From positions 1 to 44,812 of the forward strand of contig NZ_CALWXV010000018.1 in the NCBI RefSeq assembly GCF_944385615.1: 44,812 nt of DNA. Reading direction: 5' to 3'. This DNA comes from an uncultured Flavonifractor sp. (GTDB lineage Bacteria; Bacillota; Clostridia; Oscillospirales; Oscillospiraceae). This document shows, piece after piece, positions 13,603 through 33,151 of this stretch. The position numbers and the translations under genes were made by a program. Each line of letters begins with the position of its first letter. The first letter of the stretch is position 1. The notes under the pieces are model-generated. The model was not told the DNA's origin. It did no database searches and saw nothing but the letters and a program-made list of their open reading frames with translations.

Positions 13603-14656
13603 GGTCGAAAAAAAATAAGGAGGAATTCCCAATGAGAAACCTCAAGCGGACTCTCAGTCTGGTTCTGGCCGCTCTCATGCTGATGGGCATGATGGTAGTC
13701 GGCGCCGGTGCTGCGGGTGTTGACGACTTCTCCGATAAGGATGAGATCGTCAACAAGGACGCCGTTTCCATGCTCACCATTCTGGGCGTGATCAACGGCA
13801 AGGAAGATGGGTCTTATTATGCCCCCAAGGATAATGTGACCCGTGCCGAGATGGCTAAGATGATTGCCACCATCCTGAACCAGGGTGCTGATGTCAATGA
13901 TCTGTACGCCAACCTCGAGACTGGCCTGACTGACATCGACAACAGCTGGGCCAAGGGCTACATCAACTACTGCTACAGCCTGGGCATCATCGCCGGCCGT
14001 GGCAACGGCACCTTCGACCCCACTGCCCCTGTTACCGGCAATGAGGCCGCCAAGATGCTGCTGGTGGCTATCGGCTACGACCCCGAGGTTGAGGGTCTGA
14101 CCGGTGCTTCCTGGGCCATCAAGACCACCTCTCTGGCTTCTACCCTGGGTATCTTTGATGACCTGACTGCTCCCACCGCTGAGAACCTGAACCGTGACAA
14201 CGCTGCTCTGCTCATCTACAACGCTCTGGACGTTGAGATGATCCAGAAGTACGAGGACGGCTATGCCATGATCTTCGAGGATCACCGCACCCTGCTGTCC
14301 AACAAGTACGGCGTGTACAAGGTCGAGGGTATTGTGACCGCCAACGAGTGGGCTGAGCTGAATCAGACCAACTCCGAGGCCACTGCCAAGACTGGCAAGA
14401 CCACCCTGGATCATGTCAAGGTGTACGCTTCCACCACCTCCAACACCACTGTTGCTGAGTACGTGGAGGAGAAGGAGCCTGTGACCTTCAACGTGTCCAC
14501 CGACGTGAGCATGCTGGGTAAGGCTGTCACCATGTACATCAAGAAGACCACCGTTCTGGCCAACTCCACCGTGCTGGGCGTGACCGTGGACGACAAGGTC
14601 AACGTGATCGAGGGCACTGTGGCCAACAGCAGCAAGGTGACCGACCTGCTGAAGGG
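13603..14656. repeat. Left arm of ~1.05 kb inverted repeat (S-layer 5' ends)
   Basis: Reverse-complement match to 32098-33151. It covers the end of the 5' leader, the AAGGAGG ribosome site, the signal peptide, the three SLH motifs and following sequence up to about codon 341. I saw one mismatch in the leader A-run and none in the coding part that I compared; the next difference is at 14657. The bodies diverge after this point, though conserved blocks recur. Confidence 0.9.
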
Positions 14657-17600
14657 CACCGGCCTGTCCGTGACCGACGACACCGAGTACTATGTGAACT
14701 ACGGCTATGAGACTGCTTCCAAGGCCGCTGAGCTCATCAGCGACTACGATTGGACCAAGACTGCCAGCAAGTTCAACATGAACGGTGTTGACGTGAAGCT
14801 GATCGACAACAACAACGACGGCGACGTGGAGTACGTGCTGTACATCCGCGAGACCCTGTCCAACGTTGTCCGCACCAACACCAAGGACGAGACCGTCACC
14901 ATCAACGTGCCTGTTGTGGATGCCAACGGCATTCTGACCACCACTACCAGCAAGGCCAGCACCACCACTCAGGTTCTGGACAACGCCGACGTGGTGACCA
15001 GCATGGAGCTGGCTGCTGACGACCTGATCCTGTATGTCCAGTACGGCGGCCGTACTTACATCACCGAGCCCACCATCGTGACCGGCACCATGACCCGTGT
15101 GGATCGCGACCAGGCTGAGGAGCTGTACATCACCGTGGACGACGGCGAGACCTACAAGATGTCCTACATCCGTGAGGTCGAGTCTCAGGTGGACGCTGAC
15201 ATCACCCGCTTCTACATCGAGAACGCCGGCCAGAGCACTGGCGCCAAGTTCGACACCAAGTACGACTTCATCCTGGACTCCAACGGCTACATCGTGGCCT
15301 TCCGTCCTGCTGAGGATGTGGTTGCCAACTACGGCCTGGTGATCGGTTCCGCTTGGACTCAGAACGCTCTTACCAAGGCTGGCGAGGTCAAGATCCTGCG
15401 TGCTGATAACGTGGAGCAGACCTACACCATCGACTGGAAGGCTTCTGACGACTGCTTCACCAATGGCGAGACTGGCCTGGAGAACTATCTGGGCACCCGC
15501 GACGTAAACAATAACATTGGCGGTACTACCACTGGCAACAACCTGAACAATGCTGCCGGTACCGTGATTGAGTACTCTCTGACCGAGGACAACATCCTGA
15601 CCATTGAGAACGTCCTCAACCTGAACGGCCTGACCGCTGGTAAGCTGACTGTGGCCAGCAACGGCGATCAGAGCAAGATCACCATCGACGACAACAGCAA
15701 GGCTGTTGCCAAGATCGACTCCTCCAACCCCAATTTCCCCGCCAACCTGCAGTACAATCTGAACAGCAAGTATGAGAACGGCAACGGCTACCTGAACGTG
15801 AATGTGAAGGGCACCGCTGTCCAGGAGACCTTCGCCATTGACAAGAACACCATCGCTTTCTACTATGACGTGAAGGACGACGGTACCGTGAAGTATGGCG
15901 TGGCCACTGGCTGGGAGAACATGGGCGATGTGGCTGCCAATGTGGATGCTCAGGTCTATCCTGTCATCACCAAGAGCGGCGGCCAGTATGTTGCTTCCTC
16001 TCTGGCTGACGTGGTTCTGTTCAACGCTGAGCTGACCACCAACACCGCCAACTACATGCTGGTTCTGAACGCCAACGCTGTTGACTCCAAGAACCTGGAG
16101 CTGAACGTTGTCTTTGAAGACGGCACCACCGCTGCTATCACTGTTTCTAAGTCTGACTATGGCACTGCCTTCGGTACCAACGCCTCCTTCATGAAGGCTT
16201 ACAAGTACGGTGTGGACGGCAACGGCAAGTACACCATCGACACCACCAGCGCTATTGCCGCTAAGCCCGCCGCCCTGCTGCAGAACGGCACTGTGGATGT
16301 GAACGGCACCTACCTGACCATCCTGGGCAACACCAACATCTGGGATGTCACCGATGTTGACAGCGCCAATGATGAGGTCACCACCGGCAGCTTCGACTAT
16401 GTCAACAAGAAGTGGGCCGTGGTTGTTGACACCAACAGCGGTAAGACCATGAAGACCGCTTGGGTGTGGGATATGGACAGCGACAACATCTATGGCACCA
16501 GCTGCACCTTCGACTGGAACCTGACCAACTATGAGACTGTTTGGGCTACCGGTACCATCTATGACTACATGCAGCTGGCTCAGGCTCTGAACAGCGGCAA
16601 GAACGTCCGTGTGGTTGGCAACCTGACCCTGACCTACCCCCTGAACATCCCCGCTGGTATCACCGTTCAGGTGGAGGGCAACCTGACCACTACTGCTACT
16701 AACAACGTGACTGGCCAGGGCAACCTGCGCGTCTACGGCACCTACTACGCCAACTCCAACATCGTGGTTCCCACCCAGGTTCTGGCTCTGGAGACCGCTG
16801 ATAACATCTCCATCAAGGCTGATACCCATGTGTACAATAGCGCCACTCTGGGTGCTACTGTTACCAACACTGCCACCAACACCATTGACACCGGCGTCCA
16901 CTTCTGCTCTCGCAACGGCACTGTTGACGCTTGGAACTACCTGGTAATCAACGGCCACTATGAGTCCAACGATACCATTCTCAACGTTGGCGGCGAGATC
17001 AACAGCACCAATACTATGATCGTCTTTGGTAACCTGACCATCAAGAGCGGTACCCTGACTGTGGGTAAGACTGCTGCCGGTAACCTGGTTATGGCTGGCA
17101 ACGGTACCATCTCCGGTAACGGTACTCTGCAGGTTGGTACTGCTGGCACTGTGGACGGCAACGTGACCCTGACCACCGGTTCCGCTGTGAACATGGCTGG
17201 CAGCGTGATCGTGGATGCCAAGGGCACCATTTCCCAGAACTATGTTTCCGGCAAGACCCTGACCGCTGGTTCTGTCACCATCAATGGCGGTACTGTGAAC
17301 GTGCCCGGCAGCATTGTTGCCAGCACTGGCAGCGTGGTCATCGGCGCTAACTCCCATGTGACCGTGACCGGCACCATCAGCGCCCCCAACGGCGTTGTCT
17401 CCATCTCTGACGGCGCTACCGTTGAGACTGGCTCTGAGAGCGGCAAGCCCGGCACCGGCCTGGCTCTGGGCAGCCTGACCGTGAAGGGCCAGAGCATTGC
17501 TGTCAGCGGCTCCGACCTCTATGTCAACCTGAGCTATGCTGCTGCCAACAACACCAACAGCGTTGCCTTCGCTTACTCCCTGGCCAATGACACCACCAAT

Positions 17601-18641
17601 GTGACTGTGTCCATCCGCGATGAGCACAACAACGCAATCGTGGGCAACACTGGCACCAACGCTCTTTCTACCGGCGTTTACACCATCGTGCTGTCCAGCC
17701 CCACTGCTGATGCTGTCACCTACAGAGTGCATGTCACTGTGGGCGATGCCATTAAAGACACTTCTCTGACCAGCATCACCGTGAAGGGCGTGACCGCCTC
17801 CAAGGTGGACGATAGCACTGCTAACGGGAGCGAGGAGCACCCCATCAAGTATGAGGTCGAGCTGACCTACAACCTGGCTTGGGATACTGTGGCCACTCAG
17901 CTGTCCATCGTAACCAAGGAGTCCTCTGCTACCGTGGCAAACTTCAAGGCTGGTACCACCAATATCGCGGACATCACCGATGCCGACGCTGACAAGACTG
18001 GTACTGTTGCCGCTGGTTTTGTAACCTTCTCTGTGAAGGCTGACAAGCGGAATGAGACTTTCTACCAGCTGGAAGTCAAGGTGAATGACAGCAAGAAGGT
18101 CACCCTGAACACCACTGTTGACTCCAGCAATGTGACCCTGAGCGCCTACAAGGTTTCCGGCGATACCAAGTTTACCGCTGTTGCCGGCAACATTGAGACC
18201 GTCTCCAACAAGGAGATGTTCCTGCAGTTCAACAATGTTGGCTATGAGGGCCTGAAGGTTTACTATCAGATCCTTAGCGCCGGCGCCATTGCTGATGAGA
18301 AGGCTTGGGTGGAGCTGCCTGCCAATCCCGACGGCACCTACACTCTGACCACCACCATCCTGGCTCAGGCCGAGGGCAAGACCATTGTCCTGAAGGCTGA
18401 GGCTACCACTCCCATGGTGCAGTTCACTGTTAAGTCCAGCACCAACGTTATGGTCAACAATGTGCCTGTGAGCGGCAATTCTCTGTACGTCTCTCAGAAC
18501 AGCACTGCGACTGTCAGCGTGAAGGCTGGTGAGAAGGTCAGCTTTAACGGCGCTACCTATCAGTATGTCAAGGCTGAGAACGGTTACGACATCTACAACG
18601 TGACCTTCGGTACTGTCGATGCTTCTCTGACTGTTGGCTAA
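13632..18641 (+). CDS. Giant SLH-domain S-layer-type protein (left copy)
   Basis: Secreted surface protein of 1669 aa, probably a main S-layer protein. A signal peptide (1-27, MRNLKRTLSLVLAALMLMGM start) is followed by three SLH motifs (about 32-85, 97-150, 158-205) that would bind secondary wall polysaccharide. After a long middle region (about 210-980) comes a repeat-rich beta-helix-like part (about 985-1270; GNLTLTYPLNIPAGITVQVEG, SGNGTLQVGTAGTVDGNVTL). At least two Ig/cadherin-like repeats follow (about 1275-1490; SLTSITVKGVTASKV). Codon use is strongly biased (CTG, ACC, AAC, GGC), as expected for very high expression. The ATG has AAGGAGG at 8-nt spacing. No convincing promoter is visible just upstream, unlike the right copy. 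It ends at a bidirectional terminator. Confidence 0.92.
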   Translation: MRNLKRTLSLVLAALMLMGMMVVGAGAAGVDDFSDKDEIVNKDAVSMLTILGVINGKEDGSYYAPKDNVTRAEMAKMIATILNQGADVNDLYANLETGLTDIDNSWAKGYINYCYSLGIIAGRGNGTFDPTAPVTGNEAAKMLLVAIGYDPEVEGLTGASWAIKTTSLASTLGIFDDLTAPTAENLNRDNAALLIYNALDVEMIQKYEDGYAMIFEDHRTLLSNKYGVYKVEGIVTANEWAELNQTNSEATAKTGKTTLDHVKVYASTTSNTTVAEYVEEKEPVTFNVSTDVSMLGKAVTMYIKKTTVLANSTVLGVTVDDKVNVIEGTVANSSKVTDLLKGTGLSVTDDTEYYVNYGYETASKAAELISDYDWTKTASKFNMNGVDVKLIDNNNDGDVEYVLYIRETLSNVVRTNTKDETVTINVPVVDANGILTTTTSKASTTTQVLDNADVVTSMELAADDLILYVQYGGRTYITEPTIVTGTMTRVDRDQAEELYITVDDGETYKMSYIREVESQVDADITRFYIENAGQSTGAKFDTKYDFILDSNGYIVAFRPAEDVVANYGLVIGSAWTQNALTKAGEVKILRADNVEQTYTIDWKASDDCFTNGETGLENYLGTRDVNNNIGGTTTGNNLNNAAGTVIEYSLTEDNILTIENVLNLNGLTAGKLTVASNGDQSKITIDDNSKAVAKIDSSNPNFPANLQYNLNSKYENGNGYLNVNVKGTAVQETFAIDKNTIAFYYDVKDDGTVKYGVATGWENMGDVAANVDAQVYPVITKSGGQYVASSLADVVLFNAELTTNTANYMLVLNANAVDSKNLELNVVFEDGTTAAITVSKSDYGTAFGTNASFMKAYKYGVDGNGKYTIDTTSAIAAKPAALLQNGTVDVNGTYLTILGNTNIWDVTDVDSANDEVTTGSFDYVNKKWAVVVDTNSGKTMKTAWVWDMDSDNIYGTSCTFDWNLTNYETVWATGTIYDYMQLAQALNSGKNVRVVGNLTLTYPLNIPAGITVQVEGNLTTTATNNVTGQGNLRVYGTYYANSNIVVPTQVLALETADNISIKADTHVYNSATLGATVTNTATNTIDTGVHFCSRNGTVDAWNYLVINGHYESNDTILNVGGEINSTNTMIVFGNLTIKSGTLTVGKTAAGNLVMAGNGTISGNGTLQVGTAGTVDGNVTLTTGSAVNMAGSVIVDAKGTISQNYVSGKTLTAGSVTINGGTVNVPGSIVASTGSVVIGANSHVTVTGTISAPNGVVSISDGATVETGSESGKPGTGLALGSLTVKGQSIAVSGSDLYVNLSYAAANNTNSVAFAYSLANDTTNVTVSIRDEHNNAIVGNTGTNALSTGVYTIVLSSPTADAVTYRVHVTVGDAIKDTSLTSITVKGVTASKVDDSTANGSEEHPIKYEVELTYNLAWDTVATQLSIVTKESSATVANFKAGTTNIADITDADADKTGTVAAGFVTFSVKADKRNETFYQLEVKVNDSKKVTLNTTVDSSNVTLSAYKVSGDTKFTAVAGNIETVSNKEMFLQFNNVGYEGLKVYYQILSAGAIADEKAWVELPANPDGTYTLTTTILAQAEGKTIVLKAEATTPMVQFTVKSSTNVMVNNVPVSGNSLYVSQNSTATVSVKAGEKVSFNGATYQYVKAENGYDIYNVTFGTVDASLTVG

Positions 18642-18677
18642 AAATTGCTGACTCTTGATTGTAGATAAACTGCAATC

Positions 18678-18710
18678 AAAGGACCCCCGGGTTTCCCGGG
18701 GGTCCTTTTT
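18678..18710. terminator. Bidirectional terminator between S-layer and tail-fibre-like genes (left)
   Basis: A 14-bp stem (18678-18691 with 18695-18708), 3-nt loop, with A-run on the left and T-run on the right. It serves the plus-strand S-layer gene and the convergent minus-strand 208-aa gene. Confidence 0.92.
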
Positions 18711-18753
18711 ATGTTTGATGCAATTTATAGCTCTGCCCGTAAAAAGCAAGCTC

Positions 18754-19380
18754 TCAGCGCAAAGCCAGATATGTGTATGAGATTCCGCTTGTGTTTGGCG
18801 TATCACCATACGCATAGTCATATGTGACTTCCATGCCTGTAGAAACAATGCGGAGCAGAGTGGTTTGGTTGTTGCCAATGGCGATTCCATAAAAATTCCC
18901 GCCTGAAACAAAAACTGCCTTTGGCTGAAATCCCAAATTGATTGTTTGTGAAATTTGGTTGTAAGGTATATTGCTCGTGCCGTTGCCAGTATAGCTGCCC
19001 CGGACAAACTCCGCCTTGCCGCTGGACAGTGAGTTGATTTGGCCCTGCTGGGTATTGATCTGGCCCTGCTGGGTGTTGATTTGGTTCTGCAAATTGGTGA
19101 TGGAATCGAAGCCGGGCTTGCTGTTGATCTGCTGCTGCTGGGTGTTGATTTGATTTTGCAGATTGGAAATGGCGTCTGGATTGGGTAGATTGTTGATCTG
19201 GCCTTGCAGATTGCCGATGCTGCTGTTGAGCTGCCCCTGCAAGCTGGTGATGGCGCTGTTGTCAGCCTTACCGGCCAGAGCAGTGTCGATTTTGCTCAAG
19301 TCGGTGTTGAAATCGGTCCGCAGGAAATTGTCCTGCGGGTCCCACTGGTGCAGCTGATAATTTGGTGTGAATGTACCCAT
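18754..19380 (-). CDS. Tail-fibre-like coiled-coil protein (left copy)
   Basis: Protein of 208 aa with no signal peptide and no known enzymatic motif. Residues 1-36 (FTPNYQLHQWDPQDNFLRTD) resemble the N-terminal segment of phage tail-fibre or appendage proteins. Residues about 45-120 are a Gln/Asn-rich coiled coil of repeated LQNQINTQQ-type units, probably trimeric. Residues about 128-208 form a predicted beta-rich tip (GSYTGNG...INLGFQPKAVFVS...) ending YTYLALR. The ATG at 19380 has GGGAGG at 6-nt spacing; an upstream frame extension lacks one. The homologue at 27531-28157 has the same length and lies in inverted orientation. It is convergent with the left S-layer gene across one terminator. 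No other phage genes are present. Function unknown. Confidence 0.8.
   Translation of the reverse strand: MGTFTPNYQLHQWDPQDNFLRTDFNTDLSKIDTALAGKADNSAITSLQGQLNSSIGNLQGQINNLPNPDAISNLQNQINTQQQQINSKPGFDSITNLQNQINTQQGQINTQQGQINSLSSGKAEFVRGSYTGNGTSNIPYNQISQTINLGFQPKAVFVSGGNFYGIAIGNNQTTLLRIVSTGMEVTYDYAYGDTPNTSGISYTYLALR
19231..19380. repeat. Inverted homology arm in tail-fibre-like gene (left)
   Basis: The first ~150 bp of this gene match the start of the gene at 27531 in reverse orientation. The stretch from CACCAAATTATCAGCTGCAC to the GATTTCAAC block has only one mismatch over about 60 bp. Confidence 0.75.
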
Positions 19381-19477
19381 GCGATTCCTCCCTCTGTTTC
19401 TCTGTATGTGAGGCCCTTTGCCCCACTTTTGATTTTTCCCAAGGACCCCTTTGGCATGGGATTTTTGTTGCACACAG

Positions 19478-19522
19478 AAAAAACGCCCCCTGTACGGAGC
19501 ATTTGCTCCATACAGGGGGCGT
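19478..19522 (-). terminator. Terminator of the glycan polymerase gene
   Basis: A 12-bp GC-rich stem (19483-19494 with 19511-19522), with an inner GGAGC/GCTCC stem, is followed on the minus strand by TTTTTT. It lies 21 bp after the stop of the polymerase gene and separates it from the tail-fibre-like gene. Confidence 0.9.
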
Positions 19523-19542
19523 ACTTTCTGCAAAATCCGCGC

Positions 19543-21921
19543 TCAGCCAGCCGCAATGCCCAGCTGGGTCAGCCAGGTCATGGTCTGCTCAGGCAGGACG
19601 ATCTCACCCATGTGAGTTGCGTTCCAATCCAGCATTTTCTGATACAGCTCGGTGACAGCCGTGCGATAAGTGGGGTCCTCCTGGTAGACCTGCATAATGA
19701 GGTCAAAGGAGGTCTGCCACGCATCGCTGTCCGCCGCCATATAGTCCACATACTGATTGATCATTTCAAAGGCCTTGGGCGCGTTCTGCTGGTTGAAATA
19801 ATACTGGGCCAGGTAGATGGGGATGGTATTGGAATGGACCTTCTCCAGCCGCTGGGCGTACTTGGCCGCGGTTTCGTGGATCTCGGTCTGCTGGGCGTCC
19901 ACGCTCATGCTGCTGGTCACATAGGAGAGCATATGGTCGGCCCATTCAAACCGGTCCAGCCCAATGGCCTGCTCCACCGCGTCAAAGCTCTTTTCCCGCT
20001 CCACCAGGGCGTTGGCGTACATATTGCAGCCCAGCAGAATGGCATAGATCAGCAGCAGCGCCGCCAGCACCCAGCCGATGCCCTGGCGGATACGCTCTTT
20101 GACAAAGGTCAGGGGCATGGTCTGACCACAGCACAGGGCCACCAGACCAAACACCCCCAGTGCGAAGGGAAGATAGGCGAAGAAGGAGAATACCACTTCC
20201 ACCCCGGCGTGCCCCGCCATAAAGACCAATACACCGCCCAGCGCAGCGGCCAGGGGGTGGGACTGCTCCTGGGGCTGGCGGCGGGATTTGATGACAGCGA
20301 TAAACGCGGTCACAAATACCCCCACAAAGAGGATCAGGCCGATAATACCGGTCTCCACCAGAGACTCGATATAGTGATTGTGGGCATATTTGGTCTCATA
20401 GTAGAAGGACTGCACGCTGATGATGCCGTTCTCATAGGCGCCCATACCCAGGCCAATGATGGGGCTGCGCTGGAACAGCTTCATGCCGTCCTCAAAGAAC
20501 ACCAGGCGCTGAATGGCGTTCTGGTTGGCCCACAGGCCCTGTAGACGGTTTGCCACAAATTCAGGCAGCAGGGTATAGCCCAGGGGGAAAGAGACGCTGC
20601 CGCGCTCTCCCTGAAGGGAGAGCTCTTCCACGGTGACGTCCGCCCCCGCGGTGATGTTGGCATACACCACAATGCTGTCCTCCGGTACGGTGACGGCCGC
20701 GCCGTCCGCCGGTCCGGAATAGAGCACCGTGCTGGTGTGCATCATGGTGTCCTCCCGGTTCTGGCTTTCCAGCGTGATCTCCACCGGACCGTCACTGACC
20801 ACAGACAGGGTATAGCTGCCCGCCTCGGGGTAGGCAGCCCGGCGCAGGCTCTCCCCTGCCTTCAGAGAGGCGGAACCGGTCAGCTGCATGGCGACAAACG
20901 CAAAGACCGCCAAAACCGCCACCGCAGTGACAATGAGAATGGGCACCACGCGGGTGTGCTGCCCCAAAAGCTTGCCTATCCGCTGGCCCACAAAGTGGTC
21001 CAGCACGCAGAGCAGAGCGGCGCCGACTACGATACAGAGCAGGGGGATGGGCTGGAAGCCGGTCCACTCCACCAGAGAAGTGGCGGACACCGCGAATCCA
21101 GCCCCACAGACCAGGATCAGCGTCTCCACCATCAGCACCAGCAGGCTACCCCGGGTCTCGCGGCGCTCCAGCAGCAGGTACACCAGAAAGCCCACCGCAA
21201 TGGTGGCGCTGCCGCCCATACTGAAGGCCAGGAAGAAGGAAAGGGCGTTGATATAGAGGCACACCAGATGGAACTTTCTGTGGGTGTTGTGAGTGGAGGT
21301 CAGGGCCAGGCCCAGGGAGAGAAACACGCCGATTCCCATGCACCCGGCAAACACATTGGGGTTGGTGAAGATGGAGTTGATCCGCACCCCTACCTCCACG
21401 GGCGTGAGGGCGCTGTAATCCGGAGTAAAAAGCCCCAGAATCCCCAGCACCGGGGTGCTGATGAGGTGGGTGGACAGCAGATCGATGCTTACCAGTCCGG
21501 AAATGGCCGCCGCCCCTTCCAGGATGGCGGCAAAGCCCCGCCCAATTTCTTTTCCTGTGCCTTTGGCCAGGGCCAGCAGCAGCACCACACAGCAAAAGGA
21601 CCCCAAAAGAACCACAAAGGATTTCAGGGCAAATTTTCCCGAAATGGCATACAAGGTGGAAATTCCATTCAAAATCACCCAGGCACTCAATGCCAGGAAG
21701 GGAATGGACAAACGCTCCCTGATCTGCTTGTACCGGATGACCAGAGCGGCTACCGCGCACAAGGTCACAAAAAGGGCGACCCCCTTGGCGGTAGAGAGAT
21801 TGTTCAGGCAGATGAACAGAAAATAGGCCACTGTCAGTCCCGCCATGATGCCAAGCTGTTTCGGACTGCAGCCCAACACTGTCATAGCCGCGTTCTGTTT
21901 CTGTGTTCTATGCGACGACAT
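19543..21921 (-). CDS. O-antigen ligase/polymerase-like membrane protein (Wzy/WaaL type)
   Basis: Polytopic membrane protein of 792 aa, probably polymerising or transferring lipid-linked glycan repeats outside the membrane. About ten or more N-terminal helices are followed by an extracytoplasmic loop with a beta-rich domain (about 375-450). The Wzy_C-type block comes next, with the motif GLGMGAYENG and the conserved HNHYIESLVETGIIGLILFV. More helices and a C-terminal helical TPR-like region (about 665-792; YLAQYYFNQQNAPKAFEMIN) follow. The ATG at 21921 has GGGGAGG at 6-nt spacing; the longer frame lacks a ribosome site. It lies downstream of the sugar transferase and GT4 genes on the same strand, 144 bp away, and may have its own promoter. 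Polymerase and ligase cannot be told apart from sequence. Confidence 0.85.
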   Translation of the reverse strand: MSSHRTQKQNAAMTVLGCSPKQLGIMAGLTVAYFLFICLNNLSTAKGVALFVTLCAVAALVIRYKQIRERLSIPFLALSAWVILNGISTLYAISGKFALKSFVVLLGSFCCVVLLLALAKGTGKEIGRGFAAILEGAAAISGLVSIDLLSTHLISTPVLGILGLFTPDYSALTPVEVGVRINSIFTNPNVFAGCMGIGVFLSLGLALTSTHNTHRKFHLVCLYINALSFFLAFSMGGSATIAVGFLVYLLLERRETRGSLLVLMVETLILVCGAGFAVSATSLVEWTGFQPIPLLCIVVGAALLCVLDHFVGQRIGKLLGQHTRVVPILIVTAVAVLAVFAFVAMQLTGSASLKAGESLRRAAYPEAGSYTLSVVSDGPVEITLESQNREDTMMHTSTVLYSGPADGAAVTVPEDSIVVYANITAGADVTVEELSLQGERGSVSFPLGYTLLPEFVANRLQGLWANQNAIQRLVFFEDGMKLFQRSPIIGLGMGAYENGIISVQSFYYETKYAHNHYIESLVETGIIGLILFVGVFVTAFIAVIKSRRQPQEQSHPLAAALGGVLVFMAGHAGVEVVFSFFAYLPFALGVFGLVALCCGQTMPLTFVKERIRQGIGWVLAALLLIYAILLGCNMYANALVEREKSFDAVEQAIGLDRFEWADHMLSYVTSSMSVDAQQTEIHETAAKYAQRLEKVHSNTIPIYLAQYYFNQQNAPKAFEMINQYVDYMAADSDAWQTSFDLIMQVYQEDPTYRTAVTELYQKMLDWNATHMGEIVLPEQTMTWLTQLGIAAG

Positions 21922-22024
21922 GATGCTCCTCCCCAAATGATTACAAATTCCTGTTTCGACAAAACTTGTGAAAAGACAGGCAACCTGTCCGTCGTCTGTT
22001 GTCAAAGAAAGCCGAAACTATGTT

Positions 22025-22053: not shown

Positions 22054-22065
22054 CACGCATGGAGG

Positions 22066-23451: not shown

Positions 23452-23515
23452 GGTCGAGCAGACTCCTCTATCTCAAATGGCCCCTACACCAGAGGGGAAC
23501 GAGGGAATAAGCGCG

Positions 23516-24649
23516 TCAGGTATGGGTTATTGTCTCATCCCTCAGCGGGATCAATGCCTCATATTGAGCCATAATGATGGGCAGCACCTGGTCCAGACAA
23601 TAAACCCCCACGCTCTGCCGCCCCTGCCGTCCCATACGCTCCCGCTCTTCGGGGGATTGGAGCAATTTTTGGAGCTGGGCGGCGCAGGCCTGCCAATCGC
23701 CGTAGGGGTAGAGCAGACCACATGTATCGGGGACCAGCAGATCGGTATGGCCCTTGACCGCGCTGGCCACCACAGGCAGGCCGTAATACATAGCCTCCAT
23801 GATATTAAAGGGCAGGCCTTCGCTGCGGCTGGCGGAGACAGCAATATCCGCCGCCCCATACCACTGGGCCATACGGGCGACCTGGCCGGGGAAGATGACC
23901 CGCTGCTCGATTCCCAGGCTGCGGGCCAGGGCAACGCACTCCTCCAGAAGCGCCCCCTGGCCGGGCAGAGCCAGCTTTACCTGGAGCGGCAGCTGCGCCA
24001 GCGCCCGGAGAAGGACCTGCTGGCTCTTTCGCCCGGAAAACTCGGCCGCATAGAGAAGCAGGGTATCCGTCTCCTCAATCCCCCACTGGCGGCGCAGAGC
24101 GGATGCCTCCTCCCGGCTGATGGGAGGCAGGCGGCTGGGGTCTAGTCCCACGCCGGGAATCTCCACCATTTTTTTGCCCAGTCTATGGGCGGCGGCATAC
24201 TGGGTATCCCACCGGTTCATGGTCATCAGAAGGTCGGTCCTGGAAGCCACCAGCTTTTCGGCAGCCTGAAGAATGAGCCCCTTGGCGGCGGGATTATTTT
24301 CTCCAAATAAATACCCGTGTACCATACAAACCACTTTGGGCCGCTGTTTTCCACCATTTACCGCCAATCTGGTAAAAAAGGACGCCAGCGCCGTATGGCA
24401 GCTGACCACATCGTAGGCAGTCTCCCGCATGGTACGCCGAAGCTGGCGCAGAGCCCTGCCATTGCGCGGAGAGAGCATCTGTTTTTCAAAATCCAGGTGG
24501 ATGGTCCGGTGGGCCTCCGGGATTTCCATGGGAGCGCCGCCGCAGGCCACATCCACCGTCCAGCCCAGAGCGCGGAAGGCGGACAGATACGGACGGTGGA
24601 ACTGCACAATATGGGAATATGTAGATGCCGTAAATAGGATTTTTGGCAT
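23516..24649 (-). CDS. Glycosyltransferase family 4
   Basis: Cytoplasmic GT-B retaining glycosyltransferase of 377 aa that likely adds a sugar to the lipid-linked repeat begun by the neighbouring phosphotransferase. The N-terminal acceptor domain begins MPKILFTASTYSHIVQFHRP. The C-terminal nucleotide-sugar domain contains VIFPGQVARMAQWYGAADI and the GT4 signature SRSEGLPFNIMEAMYYGLPV (EX7E-type, about residues 280-299), followed by VVASAVKGHTDLL. The ATG has GAGGAG at 7-nt spacing, and a TATAAT box lies upstream at about 24692-24697 on the minus strand without a good -35 box. It heads the glycan operon GT4 - sugar phosphotransferase - polymerase. Confidence 0.92.
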   Translation of the reverse strand: MPKILFTASTYSHIVQFHRPYLSAFRALGWTVDVACGGAPMEIPEAHRTIHLDFEKQMLSPRNGRALRQLRRTMRETAYDVVSCHTALASFFTRLAVNGGKQRPKVVCMVHGYLFGENNPAAKGLILQAAEKLVASRTDLLMTMNRWDTQYAAAHRLGKKMVEIPGVGLDPSRLPPISREEASALRRQWGIEETDTLLLYAAEFSGRKSQQVLLRALAQLPLQVKLALPGQGALLEECVALARSLGIEQRVIFPGQVARMAQWYGAADIAVSASRSEGLPFNIMEAMYYGLPVVASAVKGHTDLLVPDTCGLLYPYGDWQACAAQLQKLLQSPEERERMGRQGRQSVGVYCLDQVLPIIMAQYEALIPLRDETITHT

Positions 24650-24790: not shown

Positions 24791-24841
24791 AAAAGAACCC
24801 CCTCCCTGCACAGATCATAGACCTGTACAGAGAGGGGGTTC
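24791..24841 (-). terminator. Terminator of the third SLH gene
   Basis: A 10-bp stem (24795-24804 with 24832-24841), partly pairing loop, followed on the minus strand by TTTTG. It lies 48 bp after the SLH gene stop. Confidence 0.8.
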
Positions 24842-24889
24842 CTGTATCCAATTTTGTGGGGGAGTATCTGCCCCCTTTCGTCTGTTCCC

Positions 24890-27166: not shown

Positions 27167-27229
27167 AAAATATCCCTCCTTTTGGGGTTTCTGGAATAGA
27201 GCCTTGGCTCCTGATGGTTTTTATTATCC

Positions 27230-27257
27230 ATGATACCGGATTCACCGCCACCGTCAA
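27230..27257 (-). promoter_or_regulatory. Promoter of the third SLH gene
   Basis: TTGACG (27252-27257) and TATCAT (27230-27235) with a 16-bp spacer on the minus strand, about 64 bp upstream of the start codon. Confidence 0.6.
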
Positions 27258-27271
27258 CCGTTTTGCAGAGA

Positions 27272-27289
27272 TTGTAACACAAGCGTAAT
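27272..27289. promoter_or_regulatory. Shared SLH-promoter element, copy at third SLH gene
   Basis: Plus strand TTGTAACACAAGCGTAAT. It differs by one base from the element at 33247-33264, and both begin exactly 14 bp upstream of the -35 box. Likely an activator site (inference). Confidence 0.7.
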
Positions 27290-27367
27290 GTTACCATGGG
27301 TTTTTCCCATAATATTTCCATAAATCTGCCATTTTCCTGCTCGCTTTGTATCTTAACATTATATATA

Positions 27368-27406
27368 CGAAAAGGGCGCGCTGCTCAATGCAGCGCACCC
27401 TTTTCG
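27368..27406. other. Strong symmetric hairpin in a 361-bp intergenic region
   Basis: A 9-bp CGAAAAGGG/CCCTTTTCG outer stem, one mismatch, then GCGCTG/CAGCGC, 7-nt loop. It stands between the divergent third SLH gene and the right tail-fibre-like gene. No T-run follows outside the stem, so it may be a leader structure, insulator or weak terminator. The rest of 27167-27527 contains the SLH promoter and element, and no gene. Confidence 0.6.
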
Positions 27407-27530
27407 TCAGGATGTGATGATATGCATCTATTTTATACCGGTGCAACAGTTTGGCAAGTACGGCAGCCCATAAGACACGGACGGCTAATCTTTTCGGAAG
27501 GAACGTTCGTCAAAAACAAGGAGGAATATG

Positions 27531-27680
27531 ATGAGCAGATTTACACCAAATTATCAGCTGCACCAGTGGGACCCGGAGGACAATTTCCTGCGGACCGATT
27601 TCAACGAGGACTTGAGCAAGATCGACACCGCTCTGGCCAGCAAGGCCGACAACAGCGCCATTACTAACTTGCAGGGGCAA
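27531..27680. repeat. Inverted homology arm in tail-fibre-like gene (right)
   Basis: Partner of 19231-19380 in reverse orientation; high nucleotide identity over the N-terminal module. Confidence 0.75.
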
Positions 27681-28157
27681 ATCAACAATTTGCCAAACTC
27701 CGATGCTGTTGCCAACCTGCAAAATCAGATCAACGCCCAGCAGCAGCAGATCAACAGCAAACCTAATTTAGACGCTATTACCAATTTACAAAATCAAATC
27801 AACACCCAGCAGGGGCAGATCAACGGGAAAGCCAATCTTGACAGCATTACCAATCTGCAAAGCCAAATCAGTGCCCAGCAGGGACAGATCAACAGCTTAT
27901 CCAGCAGCAAGGCCGAATTTATCTATGGAAGCTATACCGGTAATGGTGGTGTATCACCGGCCCAGGTCATCACCATTGGTTTTCAGGCCAAAGCCATCTT
28001 TGTGTACGGTCAGAACTATACAGGTTTGGTGGATGCCTCTAACTGTTCCAATCTCTTGACGCTTACCACAACTGGCTTCAATGTCGTCTTTTCCCCCCTT
28101 TATGAGGGCACCCCAAATAAAAGCGGCGTCAGATATGCCTATCTGGCTATGCGTTAA
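27531..28157 (+). CDS. Tail-fibre-like coiled-coil protein (right copy)
   Basis: Homologue of the gene at 18754-19380, also exactly 208 aa and inverted relative to it. The N-terminal module FTPNYQLHQWDPEDNFLRTD is almost unchanged, with DLSKIDTAL following. The coiled coil (about 45-125) is built of LQNQIN/QQGQIN units arranged differently from the left copy: it lacks the SLQGQLNSSIGN insert and instead has an extra GKANLDSITNLQSQIS unit. The C-terminal tip (GSYTGNGG...ITIGFQAKAIFVYG...) differs strongly but ends alike in YAYLAMR. The second of two adjacent ATGs is chosen: AGGAGG is then 6 nt away, and the start matches the left copy. It is convergent with the right S-layer gene across a bidirectional terminator. 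Function unknown. Confidence 0.8.
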   Translation: MSRFTPNYQLHQWDPEDNFLRTDFNEDLSKIDTALASKADNSAITNLQGQINNLPNSDAVANLQNQINAQQQQINSKPNLDAITNLQNQINTQQGQINGKANLDSITNLQSQISAQQGQINSLSSSKAEFIYGSYTGNGGVSPAQVITIGFQAKAIFVYGQNYTGLVDASNCSNLLTLTTTGFNVVFSPLYEGTPNKSGVRYAYLAMR

Positions 28158-28178
28158 ACCGGAGTGACAGATAGCAAT

Positions 28179-28210
28179 AAAAGGCCCCCCGGAAATCCGG
28201 GGGGCCTTTT
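28179..28210. terminator. Bidirectional terminator between tail-fibre-like and S-layer genes (right)
   Basis: A 14-bp stem AAAAGGCCCCCCGG/CCGGGGGGCCTTTT with a 4-nt loop, at the same place in the module as the left terminator but with a different stem sequence. Confidence 0.92.
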
Positions 28211-28229
28211 GATTTGTGTTACAAATCGC

Positions 28230-31200
28230 TTAGCCGATGGTCAGAGTGGCGCCATTCAGCTTGAAGGAAGCCAGCTCGTAGTACCAGAAGTTGCCGTCGG
28301 CAGTAGGAGCACCAACAACAACGTTCTCGTTCTGAGCGTCCTTGCAGGTCACGCTGGTGCCAGTAGCAACCTGGACCTTGATGGTAGAACCGGTGCTCAC
28401 ATAGATGTAGTCCTTGCCGTCAGCGGGAACAACCTGCTGATCGTTGACAAACAGCCAGTAAGTAGCGGTGCCAGCCAGGTTCACCTTCAGCATCTCGGTC
28501 TTAGCCTCGGCCTTAACGGTCAGAGTCTGACCCTCAGCCTGAGCCAGGATGGCCTTGGTCAGGGTGTAGGAGCCATCAGCGTTGGCGGGCAGAACGATCC
28601 AGCTGCCGTTACCAATCTGATAGGAAACCACGAGACCCTCGTAGCCCTCAACAGCCTGAGCGGTGAACTTGATGTCGTTGCTGGAGACGGTGTCGCCAGT
28701 GGTGATGTACACGTTGGCATTGACAGAAGAACCAGTAGCCAGCTTCACCTTACCAGTATCGGTGGTGGTGATGGTGATGGTGTAGTCCTTAGTAGTGCCA
28801 TTCTCAGCCTTAACAGTGATGGTCACAGTACCAGCAGCAACAGTGCCCTTGCCGTCAGCCACAATACCGGTGGTACCGGCATCGGTGATAACCACAGTAG
28901 CATTCGCGTCAGCGGTAGTCACAACCAGCTGGTCGACAGTGGTGTCGTTAGCCTGGTTGTAGGTCAGGGACACGGTGTAGTTACCATTGGAATCCTTGGT
29001 AGCCACAGCACCCTTCACGGCAACGCTGCTCACCTCAGTGCTGATGCCAGCAGCGTTGGTGGTCACGGTCAGGGTGTAGGTGACGGAGTTGTAACCAGCC
29101 TTGGACAGGATGATGGTGTAGGTGCCGGCGGTGATAGCGGTAGTGTCGTTAGCGACAGTCTGGCCATTCTGCAGCACGGTCACGGTAGCACCAGCATCGT
29201 TGCAGGTGAAGGCGAACTTGTTCACAGTGGTGTCGTTAGCAACGCTGTAAGCCAGGTTCACGGAAGCGGTGTTGCCCACCAGGTTGGCGGACACGCCCTT
29301 GACCTTCAGGCTGGTCAGAGCCAGACCAGTCACGGTGCCGCTGCCAGTGCCGGAGGACACGTTGGTGAAGGTCTCAATCACGCCGGCCTCGGTGAAGACG
29401 CCGCCGATCTTGCCGGTAGCAGTACCGGTAACGGTCAGGGTGGTGGTAGCAGCCACGTTGCCGGGCACGTTGATGGAGCCAGCAATGTAGATGGTGTTAG
29501 CGGACAGGTTCTTGTTGTAGGCGTAGTTCTGAGTCACAGCGCCGTTGGCATTCACGGTGAAGCTACCGGTCATGTTCACGTCGGAAGCAGTGCTCAGGGT
29601 CAGGGTGCCGTAGTTCACAACCAGGGAGCCGTTGCCCTTGATGGTGCCAGCGCCGCCCATGGTCAGAGCGCCAGTGTAGGTAGTGCTACCAATAACGCCG
29701 CCCACGGTCACAGCAGCGGGAGCATTGATCTCCAGGTTGCCGAAGACCAGCAGAGTGTTGTTGCTGTAGATGTTGATGTTGGCATTGGCCTGAACGTTAG
29801 CAGCCTGCACGTGGCCATAGATGTCCAGAGTGCTGTTAACATACAGAGTGCCGTTGGAGCAGACATGGACGCCATTGCTCACGGTGGTGGCAGCATTCAC
29901 GTTGATATTGCCAGCAACATGAGTGTCCTTAATGATGGTAGTGGGAGCGCTGATGGTGAGAGCGCCGCCGACCTGAGTGGGAACAGTGATGTTGCCGTTG
30001 GACACGGTGTAGTCGCCGTAGACACGCAGGTTACCAGCACCGGTAACAGTGTAGCCGTTGGTGTTCAGGTTGCCCTGGAACTGAACGGTGAGACCAGCGG
30101 GAATCACCAGGTTGAAGTTCAGGGAAGCGGTCAGGCCGTTGTTCATGACCATGACGTTCTTGCCGGCCTGCAGGGCCTGGACAATGTTCATCTGATCATA
30201 GAAAGCGTTGCCAGTCAGATAGACCTCGCTGTAGTTGGACAGGCTCCAGTCGAAAGCACAGGTGCTGCCGAAGCTGCCGTCGCCGTCCATATCCCACACC
30301 CAAGCGGTCTTCAGGGTCTTGCCGCTGTTGGTGTCGATCACAACAGCCCACTTGTCGTTGACATAGTCGAAGCTGCCGGTAGTGACCTCGTCCTTGGCGC
30401 TGTCAACATCGGTGACATCCCAGATGTTGGTGTTGCCCACGATGGTCAGGTACTTGCCGCCGGCATCCACGGTGCCGTTCTGCAGCAGGGAGGTAGCCAC
30501 AGGAGCCACAGCGCTGGCGGTGTTGATGGTGTACTCGCCCTTGCTGTTGACGCTGTACTTGTAGGCCTTCATGAAGGAGGAATTGCTGTTGAAGTAGCTA
30601 TAATCGCTCTTGGAGACGGTGATCACGGAGGTGGTGCCGTCCTCGAAGACAACGTTCAGCTCCAGGTTCTTGGAGTCAACAGCGTTGGCGTTCAGAACCA
30701 GCATGTAGTTGGCGGAGTTGTTGGTCAGCTCAGCGTTGAACAGAACCACGTCAGCCAGAGTAGAGGCAACATACTGACCGCCGGACTTGGTGATGACGGG
30801 GTAGACCTGAGCCTTCACACCGGCATTCACATCGCCCATGTTCTCCCAGCCAGTGGCCACGCCGTACTCGCCGGAATCAGCCAGACCATCATTGTCCTTG
30901 TCGTCGAAGTAGAAGGCAATGGTGTTCTTGTCAACGGCAAAGGTCTTCTGGTTGCCGTTCACCAGCACGTTCAGGTAACCGTCGCCGGTCTCGTACTTGC
31001 TCTGCAGGGTGTACTGCAGGTTGGTGGCATTGTATCTATTCTCGATGTAGGCATAAGCCTCGCGGGAGTCATCAATGGTGATGTTGTCCTGATCAGAGCT
31101 GCTGGAAACGCTCAGATCGCCGTTAGCCTGCAGGCCGTTCAGGTTGAGCACGTTCTTGATGGTCAGAACGTTGTTCTCATTCAGAGAGTACTCAATCACG

Positions 31201-33122
31201 GTGCCCACAGCAGCATTCAGAGTGTTGCCGTACAGGTTCACGTCGCGGGTGCCCAGGTAGGTCTCCAGAGCGGTATCGTTAGCGAAAGCCTTGTCGCTGC
31301 CGACGGAAGCGCTCCAGTCGATGTCATAGGTAACCTCAAGGGAGTCAGCGGTCAGGATCTTGATCTCGCCAGCCTTGCTCAGAGCGTTCTGAGTCCAAGC
31401 GGAACCGATGACCAGACCGTAGTTGGCAACCACATCCTCAGCGGGACGGAAGGCCACGATGTAGCCGTTGGAGTCCAGGATGAAGTCGTACTTGGTGTCG
31501 AACTGAGCGCCGTTGTTCTTGCCGGCGTTCTCGATGTAGAAGCGGGTGATGTCGGCGTCAACCTGAGACTCGACCTCACGGATGTAGGACATCTTGTAGG
31601 TGTTGCCGTCGTCCACGGTGATGTACTGCTCATCAGCCTGATCGCGATCCACACGGGTCATGGTGCCGGTCACGATGGTGGGCTCGGTGATGTAAGTACG
31701 ACCGCCGTACTGGACATACAGGATCAGGTCGTCAGCAGCCAGATCCATGCTGGTCACCACGTCGGCATTGTCCAGAACCTGAGTAGTGGTGCTGGCCTTA
31801 TTGGTGGTAACGGTGGGCAGGAGGCCGTTAGCGCCCACAACAGGTACGTTGATGGTAACGGTCTCGTCCTTGGTGTTGGTGCGGACAACGTTGGACAGGG
31901 TCTCGCGGATGTACAGCACGTACTCCACTTCGCCGTCGTTGTTGTTGTCGATCAGCTTCACGTCAACACCGTTCATGTTGAACTTGCTGGCGGTGGAGTT
32001 CCAGTCATAGTCGCTGATCAGAGCGGAAGCGCTGGAAGCGCTCTCGTAGCCGTAGTTCACATAGTACTCGGTGTTGTCGTTCACGGACAGGCCGGTACCC
32101 TTCAGCAGGTCGGTCACCTTGCTGCTGTTGGCCACAGTGCCCTCGATCACGTTGACCTTGTCGTCCACGGTCACGCCCAGCACGGTGGAGTTGGCCAGAA
32201 CGGTGGTCTTCTTGATGTACATGGTGACAGCCTTACCCAGCATGCTCACGTCGGTGGACACGTTGAAGGTCACAGGCTCCTTCTCCTCCACGTACTCAGC
32301 AACAGTGGTGTTGGAGGTGGTGGAAGCGTACACCTTGACATGATCCAGGGTGGTCTTGCCAGTCTTGGCAGTGGCCTCGGAGTTGGTCTGATTCAGCTCA
32401 GCCCACTCGTTGGCGGTCACAATACCCTCGACCTTGTACACGCCGTACTTGTTGGACAGCAGGGTGCGGTGATCCTCGAAGATCATGGCATAGCCGTCCT
32501 CGTACTTCTGGATCATCTCAACGTCCAGAGCGTTGTAGATGAGCAGAGCAGCGTTGTCACGGTTCAGGTTCTCAGCGGTGGGAGCAGTCAGGTCATCAAA
32601 GATACCCAGGGTAGAAGCCAGAGAGGTGGTCTTGATGGCCCAGGAAGCACCGGTCAGACCCTCAACCTCGGGGTCGTAGCCGATAGCCACCAGCAGCATC
32701 TTGGCGGCCTCATTGCCGGTAACAGGGGCAGTGGGGTCGAAGGTGCCGTTGCCACGGCCGGCGATGATGCCCAGGCTGTAGCAGTAGTTGATGTAGCCCT
32801 TGGCCCAGCTGTTGTCGATGTCAGTCAGGCCAGTCTCGAGGTTGGCGTACAGATCATTGACATCAGCACCCTGGTTCAGGATGGTGGCAATCATCTTAGC
32901 CATCTCGGCACGGGTCACATTATCCTTGGGGGCATAATAAGACCCATCTTCCTTGCCGTTGATCACGCCCAGAATGGTGAGCATGGAAACGGCGTCCTTG
33001 TTGACGATCTCGTCCTTATCGGAGAAGTCGTCAACACCCGCAGCACCGGCGCCGACTACCATCATGCCCATCAGCATGAGAGCAGCCAGAACCAGACTGA
33101 GAGTCCGCTTGAGGTTTCTCAT
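28230..33122 (-). CDS. Giant SLH-domain S-layer-type protein (right copy)
   Basis: Secreted surface protein of 1630 aa. Its first ~341 residues (signal peptide, three SLH motifs, first body domain) are identical to the left copy. Beyond that the two proteins alternate near-identical blocks (for example VEYVLYIRETLSNVVRTNTK and FRPAEDVVANYGLVIGSAWT) with divergent ones. A beta-helix-like part lies at about 985-1255 and two Ig-like repeats at about 1265-1460 (LTSLKVKGVSANLVGN; VSSVAVKGAVATKD). The C-terminus differs in detail but ends LTIG, against LTVG in the left copy. Codon bias is as strong as in the left copy. This copy has a good promoter with the 18-bp element, so it looks like the expressed S-layer gene in the present orientation (inference). 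Confidence 0.93.
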   Translation of the reverse strand: MRNLKRTLSLVLAALMLMGMMVVGAGAAGVDDFSDKDEIVNKDAVSMLTILGVINGKEDGSYYAPKDNVTRAEMAKMIATILNQGADVNDLYANLETGLTDIDNSWAKGYINYCYSLGIIAGRGNGTFDPTAPVTGNEAAKMLLVAIGYDPEVEGLTGASWAIKTTSLASTLGIFDDLTAPTAENLNRDNAALLIYNALDVEMIQKYEDGYAMIFEDHRTLLSNKYGVYKVEGIVTANEWAELNQTNSEATAKTGKTTLDHVKVYASTTSNTTVAEYVEEKEPVTFNVSTDVSMLGKAVTMYIKKTTVLANSTVLGVTVDDKVNVIEGTVANSSKVTDLLKGTGLSVNDNTEYYVNYGYESASSASALISDYDWNSTASKFNMNGVDVKLIDNNNDGEVEYVLYIRETLSNVVRTNTKDETVTINVPVVGANGLLPTVTTNKASTTTQVLDNADVVTSMDLAADDLILYVQYGGRTYITEPTIVTGTMTRVDRDQADEQYITVDDGNTYKMSYIREVESQVDADITRFYIENAGKNNGAQFDTKYDFILDSNGYIVAFRPAEDVVANYGLVIGSAWTQNALSKAGEIKILTADSLEVTYDIDWSASVGSDKAFANDTALETYLGTRDVNLYGNTLNAAVGTVIEYSLNENNVLTIKNVLNLNGLQANGDLSVSSSSDQDNITIDDSREAYAYIENRYNATNLQYTLQSKYETGDGYLNVLVNGNQKTFAVDKNTIAFYFDDKDNDGLADSGEYGVATGWENMGDVNAGVKAQVYPVITKSGGQYVASTLADVVLFNAELTNNSANYMLVLNANAVDSKNLELNVVFEDGTTSVITVSKSDYSYFNSNSSFMKAYKYSVNSKGEYTINTASAVAPVATSLLQNGTVDAGGKYLTIVGNTNIWDVTDVDSAKDEVTTGSFDYVNDKWAVVIDTNSGKTLKTAWVWDMDGDGSFGSTCAFDWSLSNYSEVYLTGNAFYDQMNIVQALQAGKNVMVMNNGLTASLNFNLVIPAGLTVQFQGNLNTNGYTVTGAGNLRVYGDYTVSNGNITVPTQVGGALTISAPTTIIKDTHVAGNINVNAATTVSNGVHVCSNGTLYVNSTLDIYGHVQAANVQANANINIYSNNTLLVFGNLEINAPAAVTVGGVIGSTTYTGALTMGGAGTIKGNGSLVVNYGTLTLSTASDVNMTGSFTVNANGAVTQNYAYNKNLSANTIYIAGSINVPGNVAATTTLTVTGTATGKIGGVFTEAGVIETFTNVSSGTGSGTVTGLALTSLKVKGVSANLVGNTASVNLAYSVANDTTVNKFAFTCNDAGATVTVLQNGQTVANDTTAITAGTYTIILSKAGYNSVTYTLTVTTNAAGISTEVSSVAVKGAVATKDSNGNYTVSLTYNQANDTTVDQLVVTTADANATVVITDAGTTGIVADGKGTVAAGTVTITVKAENGTTKDYTITITTTDTGKVKLATGSSVNANVYITTGDTVSSNDIKFTAQAVEGYEGLVVSYQIGNGSWIVLPANADGSYTLTKAILAQAEGQTLTVKAEAKTEMLKVNLAGTATYWLFVNDQQVVPADGKDYIYVSTGSTIKVQVATGTSVTCKDAQNENVVVGAPTADGNFWYYELASFKLNGATLTIG

Positions 33123-33151
33123 TGGGAATTCCTCCTTATTTATTTTCGACC
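32098..33151. repeat. Right arm of ~1.05 kb inverted repeat (S-layer 5' ends)
   Basis: Reverse complement of 13603-14656. The arms are separated by 17.4 kb (14657-32097) that includes both S-layer bodies, both tail-fibre-like genes, the glycan operon and the third SLH gene. Confidence 0.9.

What the first reader, a model, noticed from the sequence alone, without database searches (positions are those of the whole stretch)
13603..33151. Candidate S-layer switch: two giant S-layer genes face each other with identical 1.05 kb 5' arms
The leader-proximal sequence and first ~341 codons of the two S-layer genes are essentially identical in inverted orientation (13603-14656 versus 32098-33151), while the bodies differ. 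Recombination between the arms would invert 14657-32097 and join the other body to each promoter region without breaking either frame, because the arm contains the start codon, signal peptide and SLH anchor. Campylobacter fetus sap uses this logic (conserved 5' region, invertible segment). I am not aware of a described equivalent with SLH proteins in Oscillospiraceae. That the segment inverts is inference; the repeat is seen directly.
Basis: partly seen in the sequence, partly recalled or inferred. Interest (0 to 1): 0.92.

Follow-up and report, generated by a model that had tools for sequence, protein, structure and literature searches.

The report
Recombinase-linked S-layer gene switch
A gut bacterium carries two facing surface-coat genes, one behind a promoter and one silent beside a dedicated DNA-flipping enzyme, and the same layout recurs in relatives, which suggests the cell can swap its outer coat by turning a DNA segment around.

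Summary
The inverted arms are real: 13603-14656 and 32098-33151 differ at 3 of 1054 positions. They are the 5' ends of two convergent SLH-type S-layer genes in a Flavonifractor-group draft genome (Oscillospiraceae).

Only gene B (33122-) has a promoter (TTGACG-17-TATGAT). Gene A (13632+) lies 238 bp from a divergent, catalytically complete lambda/Tn1549-type tyrosine recombinase, with GGCTACC repeats instead of a promoter. Both leaders share a short core (ATGTTCCCT).

The layout is conserved. The recombinase is in 17 of 20 genomes of the genus (window included) and, divergent from an S-layer gene, in three other genera, two of them single-contig genomes with exactly two such starts, facing each other. 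Of 41 scorable leaders, 18 have the promoter and 23 lack it, never more than one promoter per genome in that set. One gene body sits at the silent site in one species and at the promoter site in another, with both flanks conserved; leader bases 3' of the core moved with it.

Best reading: a site-specific inversion switch connecting either S-layer gene to one promoter, like Lactobacillus acidophilus slp in outcome and Mycoplasma Vpma/Xer1 in mechanism. Inversion within a population is not shown.

The parts
12251..13393 (-). lambda/Tn1549-type tyrosine recombinase (380 aa), divergent from gene A; proposed invertase
   Evidence: PF00589 6.7e-22 and PF14659 3.9e-14; R208, K246, H322, R325, H348, Y358 invariant in the 16 aligned orthologues (catalytic roles recalled); Foldseek top hits lambda Int and Tn1549 Int, TM-scores 0.4-0.5
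13503..13527 (.). GGCTACC / GGCTACC / GGTAGCC repeats in the silent leader; proposed arm-type recombinase binding sites
   Evidence: sequence; such repeats in 20 of 23 silent and 0 of 18 promoter leaders
13582..13590 (+). candidate recombination core ATGTTCCCT at the silent end
13603..14656 (+). 5' arm of gene A (RBS, start, signal sequence, SLH)
13632..18641 (+). S-layer gene A (1669 aa), promoterless in the assembled orientation (predicted OFF)
   Evidence: SLH 6.1e-21; best promoter score 7.5
18754..19533 (-). small coiled-coil-like ORF convergent with gene A
19543..22005 (-). O-antigen ligase/polymerase-like (Wzy_C) gene in the inner segment
22066..23451 (-). bacterial sugar transferase in the inner segment; orientation marker
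23516..24649 (-). group 1 glycosyltransferase in the inner segment
24890..27166 (-). third SLH protein gene (758 aa) with a promoter-like leader of its own (TTGACG-16-TATCAT); orientation marker
27528..28157 (+). small coiled-coil-like ORF convergent with gene B
28230..33122 (-). S-layer gene B (1630 aa), at the promoter site (predicted ON)
   Evidence: SLH 4.6e-21
32098..33151 (-). 5' arm of gene B, inverted copy of 13603-14656
33174..33182 (-). candidate recombination core ATGTTCCCT at the promoter end, followed by extra bases compared with the silent side
33204..33232 (-). promoter: -35 TTGACG 33232-33227, 17-nt spacer, -10 TATGAT 33209-33204
11093..12190 (-). PfkB kinase, conserved outer flank on the recombinase side, 60 bp from the recombinase
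33405..34559 (-). class V aminotransferase, conserved outer flank on the promoter side

Best explanation
A recombinase-driven S-layer switch. One fixed promoter sits at the right end. A dedicated lambda-Int-type recombinase and its arm-type repeats sit at the left, silent end. Each S-layer gene points inward and starts just inside a short core site in its 5' untranslated leader. The recombinase joins the two cores and inverts the roughly 19.6-kb segment between them (about 13590 to 33174), so that gene A or gene B comes under the promoter while promoter, repeats and recombinase stay in place. SHOWN by sequence: the parts, the one-sided promoter (prediction), conserved linkage, the shared core, and a gene body at opposite sites in two related species. 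INFERRED: that this recombinase acts on this core, that the GGCTACC repeats bind it, that inversion happens within a population, and that the effect is antigenic or phage-receptor variation. Near-identical arms are read as gene conversion between the two genes, strongest at the 5' end.
For: (1) Recombinase linkage. Close orthologues (56-79% identity, plus the window's own) are in 17 of 20 genomes of the genus. In 12 of the 17 the start lies divergently within about 270 bp of an S-layer start whose leader has no promoter; G017's copy has no match to the first 26 residues. The three strongest hits outside the genus (G068, G096, G222) have the same divergent layout. (2) One promoter. Of 43 start-motif leaders in 50 loci, 41 had enough upstream sequence: 18 score 10.5 (TTGAC-17-TAT) and 23 score 9 or less; no genome has two in this set; mono-shuffled leaders reach 10 in 90 of 8200. 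(3) The single-contig genomes G096 and G222 each have exactly two copies of the start motif (up to 3 mismatches) genome-wide, facing and 11-12 kb apart, one with the promoter and one beside the recombinase. (4) In 12 of 13 leader pairs from 12 genomes the two sides are unrelated upstream and alike downstream of one core. (5) Site exchange. Body X is at the silent site in G013 and at the promoter site in G014, with the recombinase flank 78% identical over 4466 nt and the promoter flank 84.5% over 5412 nt; it is at the silent site in G017. Leader bases 3' of the core (AGTGGAC/AGGTGGAC with X, GATGG with the other gene; read by eye) moved with the gene. (6) Inner markers point opposite ways relative to the promoter: third SLH gene, window versus G008; sugar-transferase/Wzy pair, window and G096 versus G222.
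Against: No reads were available, so no within-strain inversion is shown. The arms hold a 914-nt exact repeat, so the assembled orientation, and thus which gene is ON, could be an assembler's choice. The window's promoter-side leader has extra bases right after the core, so its site may be impaired. The left halves of silent and promoter sites are not alike, and a dyad around the core is not significant overall: mean 8.76 of 13 in 17 promoter leaders, 7.88 in 16 silent leaders, shuffle means 6.5-8.0; only 2 of the 17 beat all 100 shuffles. G002 is an exception twice: its recombinase-adjacent pair is in direct orientation, where recombination would delete, and with the looser motif it has two promoter leaders, one of each leader type. 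In G003, G007, G011 and G019 the recombinase is at the 3' side of an S-layer gene or small ORF rather than divergent from a start. No promoter leader was found in the fetched loci of G005 and G068. In the body-swap test only one of the two bodies is matched between species, and G017 has X-like bodies at both sites, so hidden paralogy is not excluded. The glycosyltransferase marker does not follow the sugar-transferase/Wzy pair between G096 and G222. G008 bodies do not discriminate.
Confidence: 0.78

Rival explanations
1. RecA-type homologous recombination within the 1.05-kb arms inverts the inner segment; the neighbouring recombinase is incidental.
For: Arms 99.7% identical with a 914-nt exact block, long enough for RecA; identity highest at the 5' end in the 10 pairs long enough to compare, weakest in G019.
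Against: Leaders are alike from a core upstream of the arms; the first 100 codons are only 70% (G019), 85% (G013) or 89% (G016) identical in some relatives; the recombinase goes with the locus in 17 of 20 genomes; leader bases between core and arm moved with body X.
Confidence: 0.1
2. A fixed duplicate pair: old inverted duplication of S-layer genes kept alike by gene conversion, without inversion.
For: No direct proof of inversion; the 5'-to-3' identity gradient fits conversion.
Against: One gene lacks a recognisable promoter yet stays open over 1669 codons; dedicated recombinase; body X at different sites in G013 and G014; opposite orientation of inner markers.
Confidence: 0.08
3. The recombinase is a remnant of an integrated element that happens to use the S-layer leader as attachment site.
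For: Family and fold are of phage/ICE integrases; 30 of 37 fetched loci of more distant relatives show no SLH ORF nearby.
Against: It lies 60 bp from PfkB in the window and next to PfkB in G001, G003, G007, G008, G010, G011 and G016, with no room for element genes on that side; a pattern scan found no relative in viral contigs.
Confidence: 0.04

Closest known systems
Lactobacillus acidophilus slpA/slpB (slp segment inversion)
   Same: Two S-layer genes on one chromosomal segment, one expressed and one lacking a promoter, interchanged by segment inversion (passages of PMC6015585 and the title of its reference Boot 1996).
   Different: 6 kb rather than 19.6 kb; different S-layer protein class (recalled: no SLH domains); no dedicated linked recombinase known to me (recalled). 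Here a recombinase and arm-type repeats are part of the locus, and the layout recurs across genera.
Mycoplasma agalactiae Vpma / Xer1 (and M. bovis Vsp)
   Same: One active promoter, silent genes linked to it by site-specific inversion, proposed sites in the 5' untranslated regions, tyrosine recombinase encoded beside the locus (passages of PMC2268961).
   Different: Lipoproteins, not S-layer; Xer-like recombinase by its name, here best matches are lambda and Tn1549 integrases. Site and enzyme sequences were not compared.
Campylobacter fetus sap
   Same: S-layer protein genes using a single promoter through inversion (a reference title, seen); conserved 5' regions (recalled).
   Different: In C. 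fetus the promoter rides on the invertible segment (title seen); here, in the nine genomes with facing pairs, the promoter would stay outside and the genes move. G019, with divergent genes 62 kb apart, would be C. fetus-like.
Clostridioides difficile CwpV switch
   Same: Phase-variable cell wall protein in Clostridia (start of the abstract in a listing).
   Different: Small leader inversion giving ON/OFF of one gene (recalled), not exchange of two S-layer genes.

Membership tests
S-layer gene inversion switch (L. acidophilus slp type) | two S-layer genes in opposite orientation with shared 5' ends | tested here: met
S-layer gene inversion switch (L. acidophilus slp type) | promoter at one gene only | tested here: met
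   sequence prediction, no transcript data
S-layer gene inversion switch (L. acidophilus slp type) | both orientations seen in a population | not testable with these tools
   no reads; only between-species exchange
S-layer gene inversion switch (L. acidophilus slp type) | homology to Lactobacillus Slp proteins | not tested
   genes A and B are SLH proteins; no comparison with Slp made
Vpma-type single-promoter site-specific switch | recombinase gene linked to the locus | tested here: met
   17 of 20 genomes of the genus have it, 12 of them divergently beside a promoterless start
Vpma-type single-promoter site-specific switch | recombination site in the 5' untranslated region of each gene | tested here: inconclusive
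   conserved core and mapped exchange, but no enzymatic test and no significant dyad
Vpma-type single-promoter site-specific switch | switching abolished by recombinase loss | not testable with these tools
   needs a mutant
lambda-type tyrosine recombinase | R-K-H-R-H-Y catalytic residues | tested here: met
   invariant in 16 of 16 aligned; residue roles recalled
lambda-type tyrosine recombinase | N-terminal arm-binding domain of three strands and a helix | tested here: inconclusive
   model shows E10-13, E18-27, E33-40, H43-54, blocks of pLDDT 58-81; no Pfam arm-domain hit at E <= 1

The most novel reading that the evidence does not exclude
A family-wide S-layer switching system in gut Oscillospiraceae in which a dedicated lambda-Int-type recombinase acts on two unequal sites, an attP-like silent site with arm repeats and an attB-like promoter site without them. 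Because repeats, promoter and enzyme stay outside the flipped segment, the asymmetry is restored after every flip. A parallel second leader type, with nine silent genes inverted against one expression site on one contig of G002, extends it to a multi-cassette system.
Probability: 0.45. Interest if true: 0.82.

Novelty: new variant of a known kind. Interest (0 to 1): 0.72.

Why it matters
The S-layer is the outermost coat and a likely target of phages, antibodies and host receptors. A dedicated switch would mean that clonal populations of common gut Oscillospiraceae carry mixed coats, which matters for phage resistance, immune recognition and strain typing. It would also offer a compact system with unequal sites for studying directional tyrosine recombination. 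In the held library no paper has S-layer, phase variation and Flavonifractor together, and none has invertible, SLH domain, recombinase and phase variation together; the related searches showed no description of such a locus in the titles and abstract starts listed. Most subscription-journal papers are missing from that library.

Tried and rejected
Rejected: equal promoters at both ends. Rejected as an unrelated integrase beside an S-layer gene: conserved linkage. Tried without result: a dyad around the core; G008 bodies and the small coiled-coil ORFs as orientation markers; recombinase relatives in viral contigs; RNA families and tRNAs in the window, none found. Of the 40 fetched recombinase loci of the family search, the 37 other than G068, G096 and G222 were set aside: 30 showed no SLH ORF and 7 did (L147, L153, L163, L165, L167, L171, L181); only L163 was looked at further.

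Choices that bear on counts: loci were fetched because they matched the S-layer arm or the recombinase. The 41 scored leaders are related, not independent; 2 of 43 were dropped for short upstream sequence; leaders more than 3 mismatches from the start motif (among them both of G002's recombinase-adjacent pair and one of G015, each of these two genomes with a promoter leader there) are outside the 41. The promoter and GGCTACC criteria were set after looking at leaders. The 20 leaders (3 with a promoter score of 10 or more, none with GGCTACC repeats) are not in the 41. In the dyad test 17 of 18 and 16 of 23 leaders had a recognised core.

Full report
OBSERVATION. The window is a whole contig (C18) of a 2.69-Mb, 87-contig draft genome, 89.55% complete. 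The inverted arms are as described: 3 mismatches in 1054 positions, two copies in the genome. They begin 29 nt before the start codon and hold the ribosome-binding site, signal sequence and SLH stretches. Beyond the arm the genes stay homologous and drift apart: nucleotide identity per 100 codons is 99, 100, 100, 93, 93, 90, 74 and so on down to about 50%.

Directly outside gene A, 238 bp away and divergent, lies a 380-aa tyrosine recombinase. Its catalytic residues are invariant in 16 aligned orthologues (the residue roles are recalled). Its model (mean pLDDT 76.7, pTM 0.57) matches lambda integrase and Tn1549 integrase best, at TM-scores of 0.4-0.5. Gene B has a promoter, TTGACG-17-TATGAT, starting 110 nt before its start codon. 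Gene A has none that scores (7.5), and instead has the repeats GGCTACC, GGCTACC and GGTAGCC. Both leaders contain ATGTTCCCT.

RELATIVES. Of 20 genomes of the genus, all 20 have SLH-arm matches and 17, the window included, have a close recombinase orthologue. In 12 of these 17 the recombinase lies divergently beside a promoterless S-layer start: window, G001, G002, G004, G005, G008, G009, G010, G013, G014, G016, G017; G017's copy has no match to the first 26 residues. In G003, G007, G011 and G019 it lies at the 3' side of an S-layer gene or a small ORF. In G012 the contig ends before a neighbour can be seen. Ten facing pairs with both leaders on one contig were found in nine genomes: window, G001, G010 (two pairs), G013, G014, G016, G017, G096 and G222.

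ONE PROMOTER PER GENOME, WITH ONE EXCEPTION. With the start motif at up to 3 mismatches, 50 loci gave 43 leaders, 41 of them with at least 125 nt upstream. Eighteen scored 10.5 with a 17-nt spacer; 23 scored 6.5 to 9. No genome had two promoter leaders in this set. Mono-shuffled leaders reached 10 in 90 of 8200 trials. GGCTACC-like repeats occurred in 0 of 18 promoter leaders and 20 of 23 silent ones. With a looser motif G002 has two promoter leaders, one of the type described here (L058) and one of the second type below (L055). G005 and G068 had only silent leaders among the fetched loci. The single-contig genomes G096 and G222, of two other genera, each hold exactly two start motifs, facing each other, one with promoter and one beside the recombinase.

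WHERE THE EXCHANGE HAPPENS. In 12 of 13 leader pairs from 12 genomes the two sides are unrelated upstream and alike downstream of the core; the thirteenth, G010's C1 pair, has two silent leaders that resemble each other further upstream too. In the window, G002, G004 and G014 the pair also differs by small indels just 3' of the core; in the window these are large enough that the promoter-side site may be impaired. The best evidence of exchange is G013 against G014. Both loci are on single contigs with orthologous outer flanks: recombinase side 78% over 4466 nt, promoter side 84.5% over 5412 nt. Per 50 codons, beyond codon 200 the silent-site body of G013 is 52-79% identical (mostly 64-79) to the promoter-site body of G014 and 38-62% identical to G014's silent-site body. 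In G017 the body matching G014's promoter-site body (71-95%, mostly 82-95, beyond codon 300) is again at the silent site. The few bases 3' of the core (AGTGGAC or AGGTGGAC with this body, GATGG with the other gene) moved with the gene, while promoter and silent flank stayed (read by eye). That places the exchange within GAGGTCTYCTCTCCT. It is one species pair, only one of the two bodies is matched, and G017 has X-like bodies at both sites, so paralogy is a residual doubt.

ORIENTATION MARKERS. Relative to the promoter, the third SLH gene (65% identity) points away in the window and towards it in G008; the sugar-transferase/Wzy pair points away in the window and G096 and towards it in G222, while the glycosyltransferase beside it points towards the promoter in both G096 and G222. 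Gene order also differs between genera, so this is supporting only. G008 S-layer bodies do not discriminate.

RESULTS AGAINST. No within-strain inversion could be tested. G002's recombinase-adjacent pair is in direct orientation. The dyad test failed overall. The exact 914-nt repeat could have misled assembly, so which gene is ON in the window is uncertain.

COMPARISON. The outcome is that of L. acidophilus slp (PMC6015585, passages). The machinery resembles Vpma/Xer1 (PMC2268961, passages; PMC5634654, passages). C. fetus sap uses a single promoter on an invertible segment (a reference title seen in PMC4902306, passages). A genome-wide inversion survey (PMC5903667, passages) has no occurrence of S-layer, SLH, Flavonifractor or Oscillibacter in its main text. 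It is filed as a new variant of a known kind: the logic is known, while the protein class, recombinase type, unequal sites and lineage appear not to have been described in what I could search.

Noticed in passing
G002 contig C10 (L054-L057, L059, L060); L271, L283, L287: A second leader type (core AAGGGGNGTYRTAC). In G002 nine S-layer genes with promoter scores of 8-8.5 all lie on the strand opposite to the one second-type gene with a promoter leader (10.5), as a multi-cassette inversion system would need; similar leaders occur in several other genera. Its recombinase was not identified.
   Followed up: partly
L163:4370-14811 (G089): Facing SLH genes with 78% inverted arms and a more distant recombinase between them, itself flanked by a 200-nt 90% inverted repeat.
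   Followed up: no
window 18754-19533 and 27528-28157: Small coiled-coil-like proteins (TPNYQLHQW near the N-terminus) sit convergent to the 3' end of each S-layer gene, and similar ORFs do so in many relatives.
   Followed up: partly
window 36488-39127: A response regulator and histidine kinase stay on the promoter side in several relatives; a regulator of the S-layer promoter is possible.
   Followed up: no
L067:7483-8511 (G017): The recombinase has no match to the first 26 residues and the silent leader lacks GGCTACC repeats, so this locus may be frozen.
   Followed up: no
L076, L089, L090, L091, L218 (G005); L062, L063 (G010): More than two S-layer genes with the same core in one genome: four leaders in G010 and at least six in G005, so the pair may be the minimal form.
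   Followed up: partly
window 33151-33174: The promoter-side leader has extra bases between core and arm compared with the silent side, which could impair site-specific recombination in this genome.
   Followed up: no
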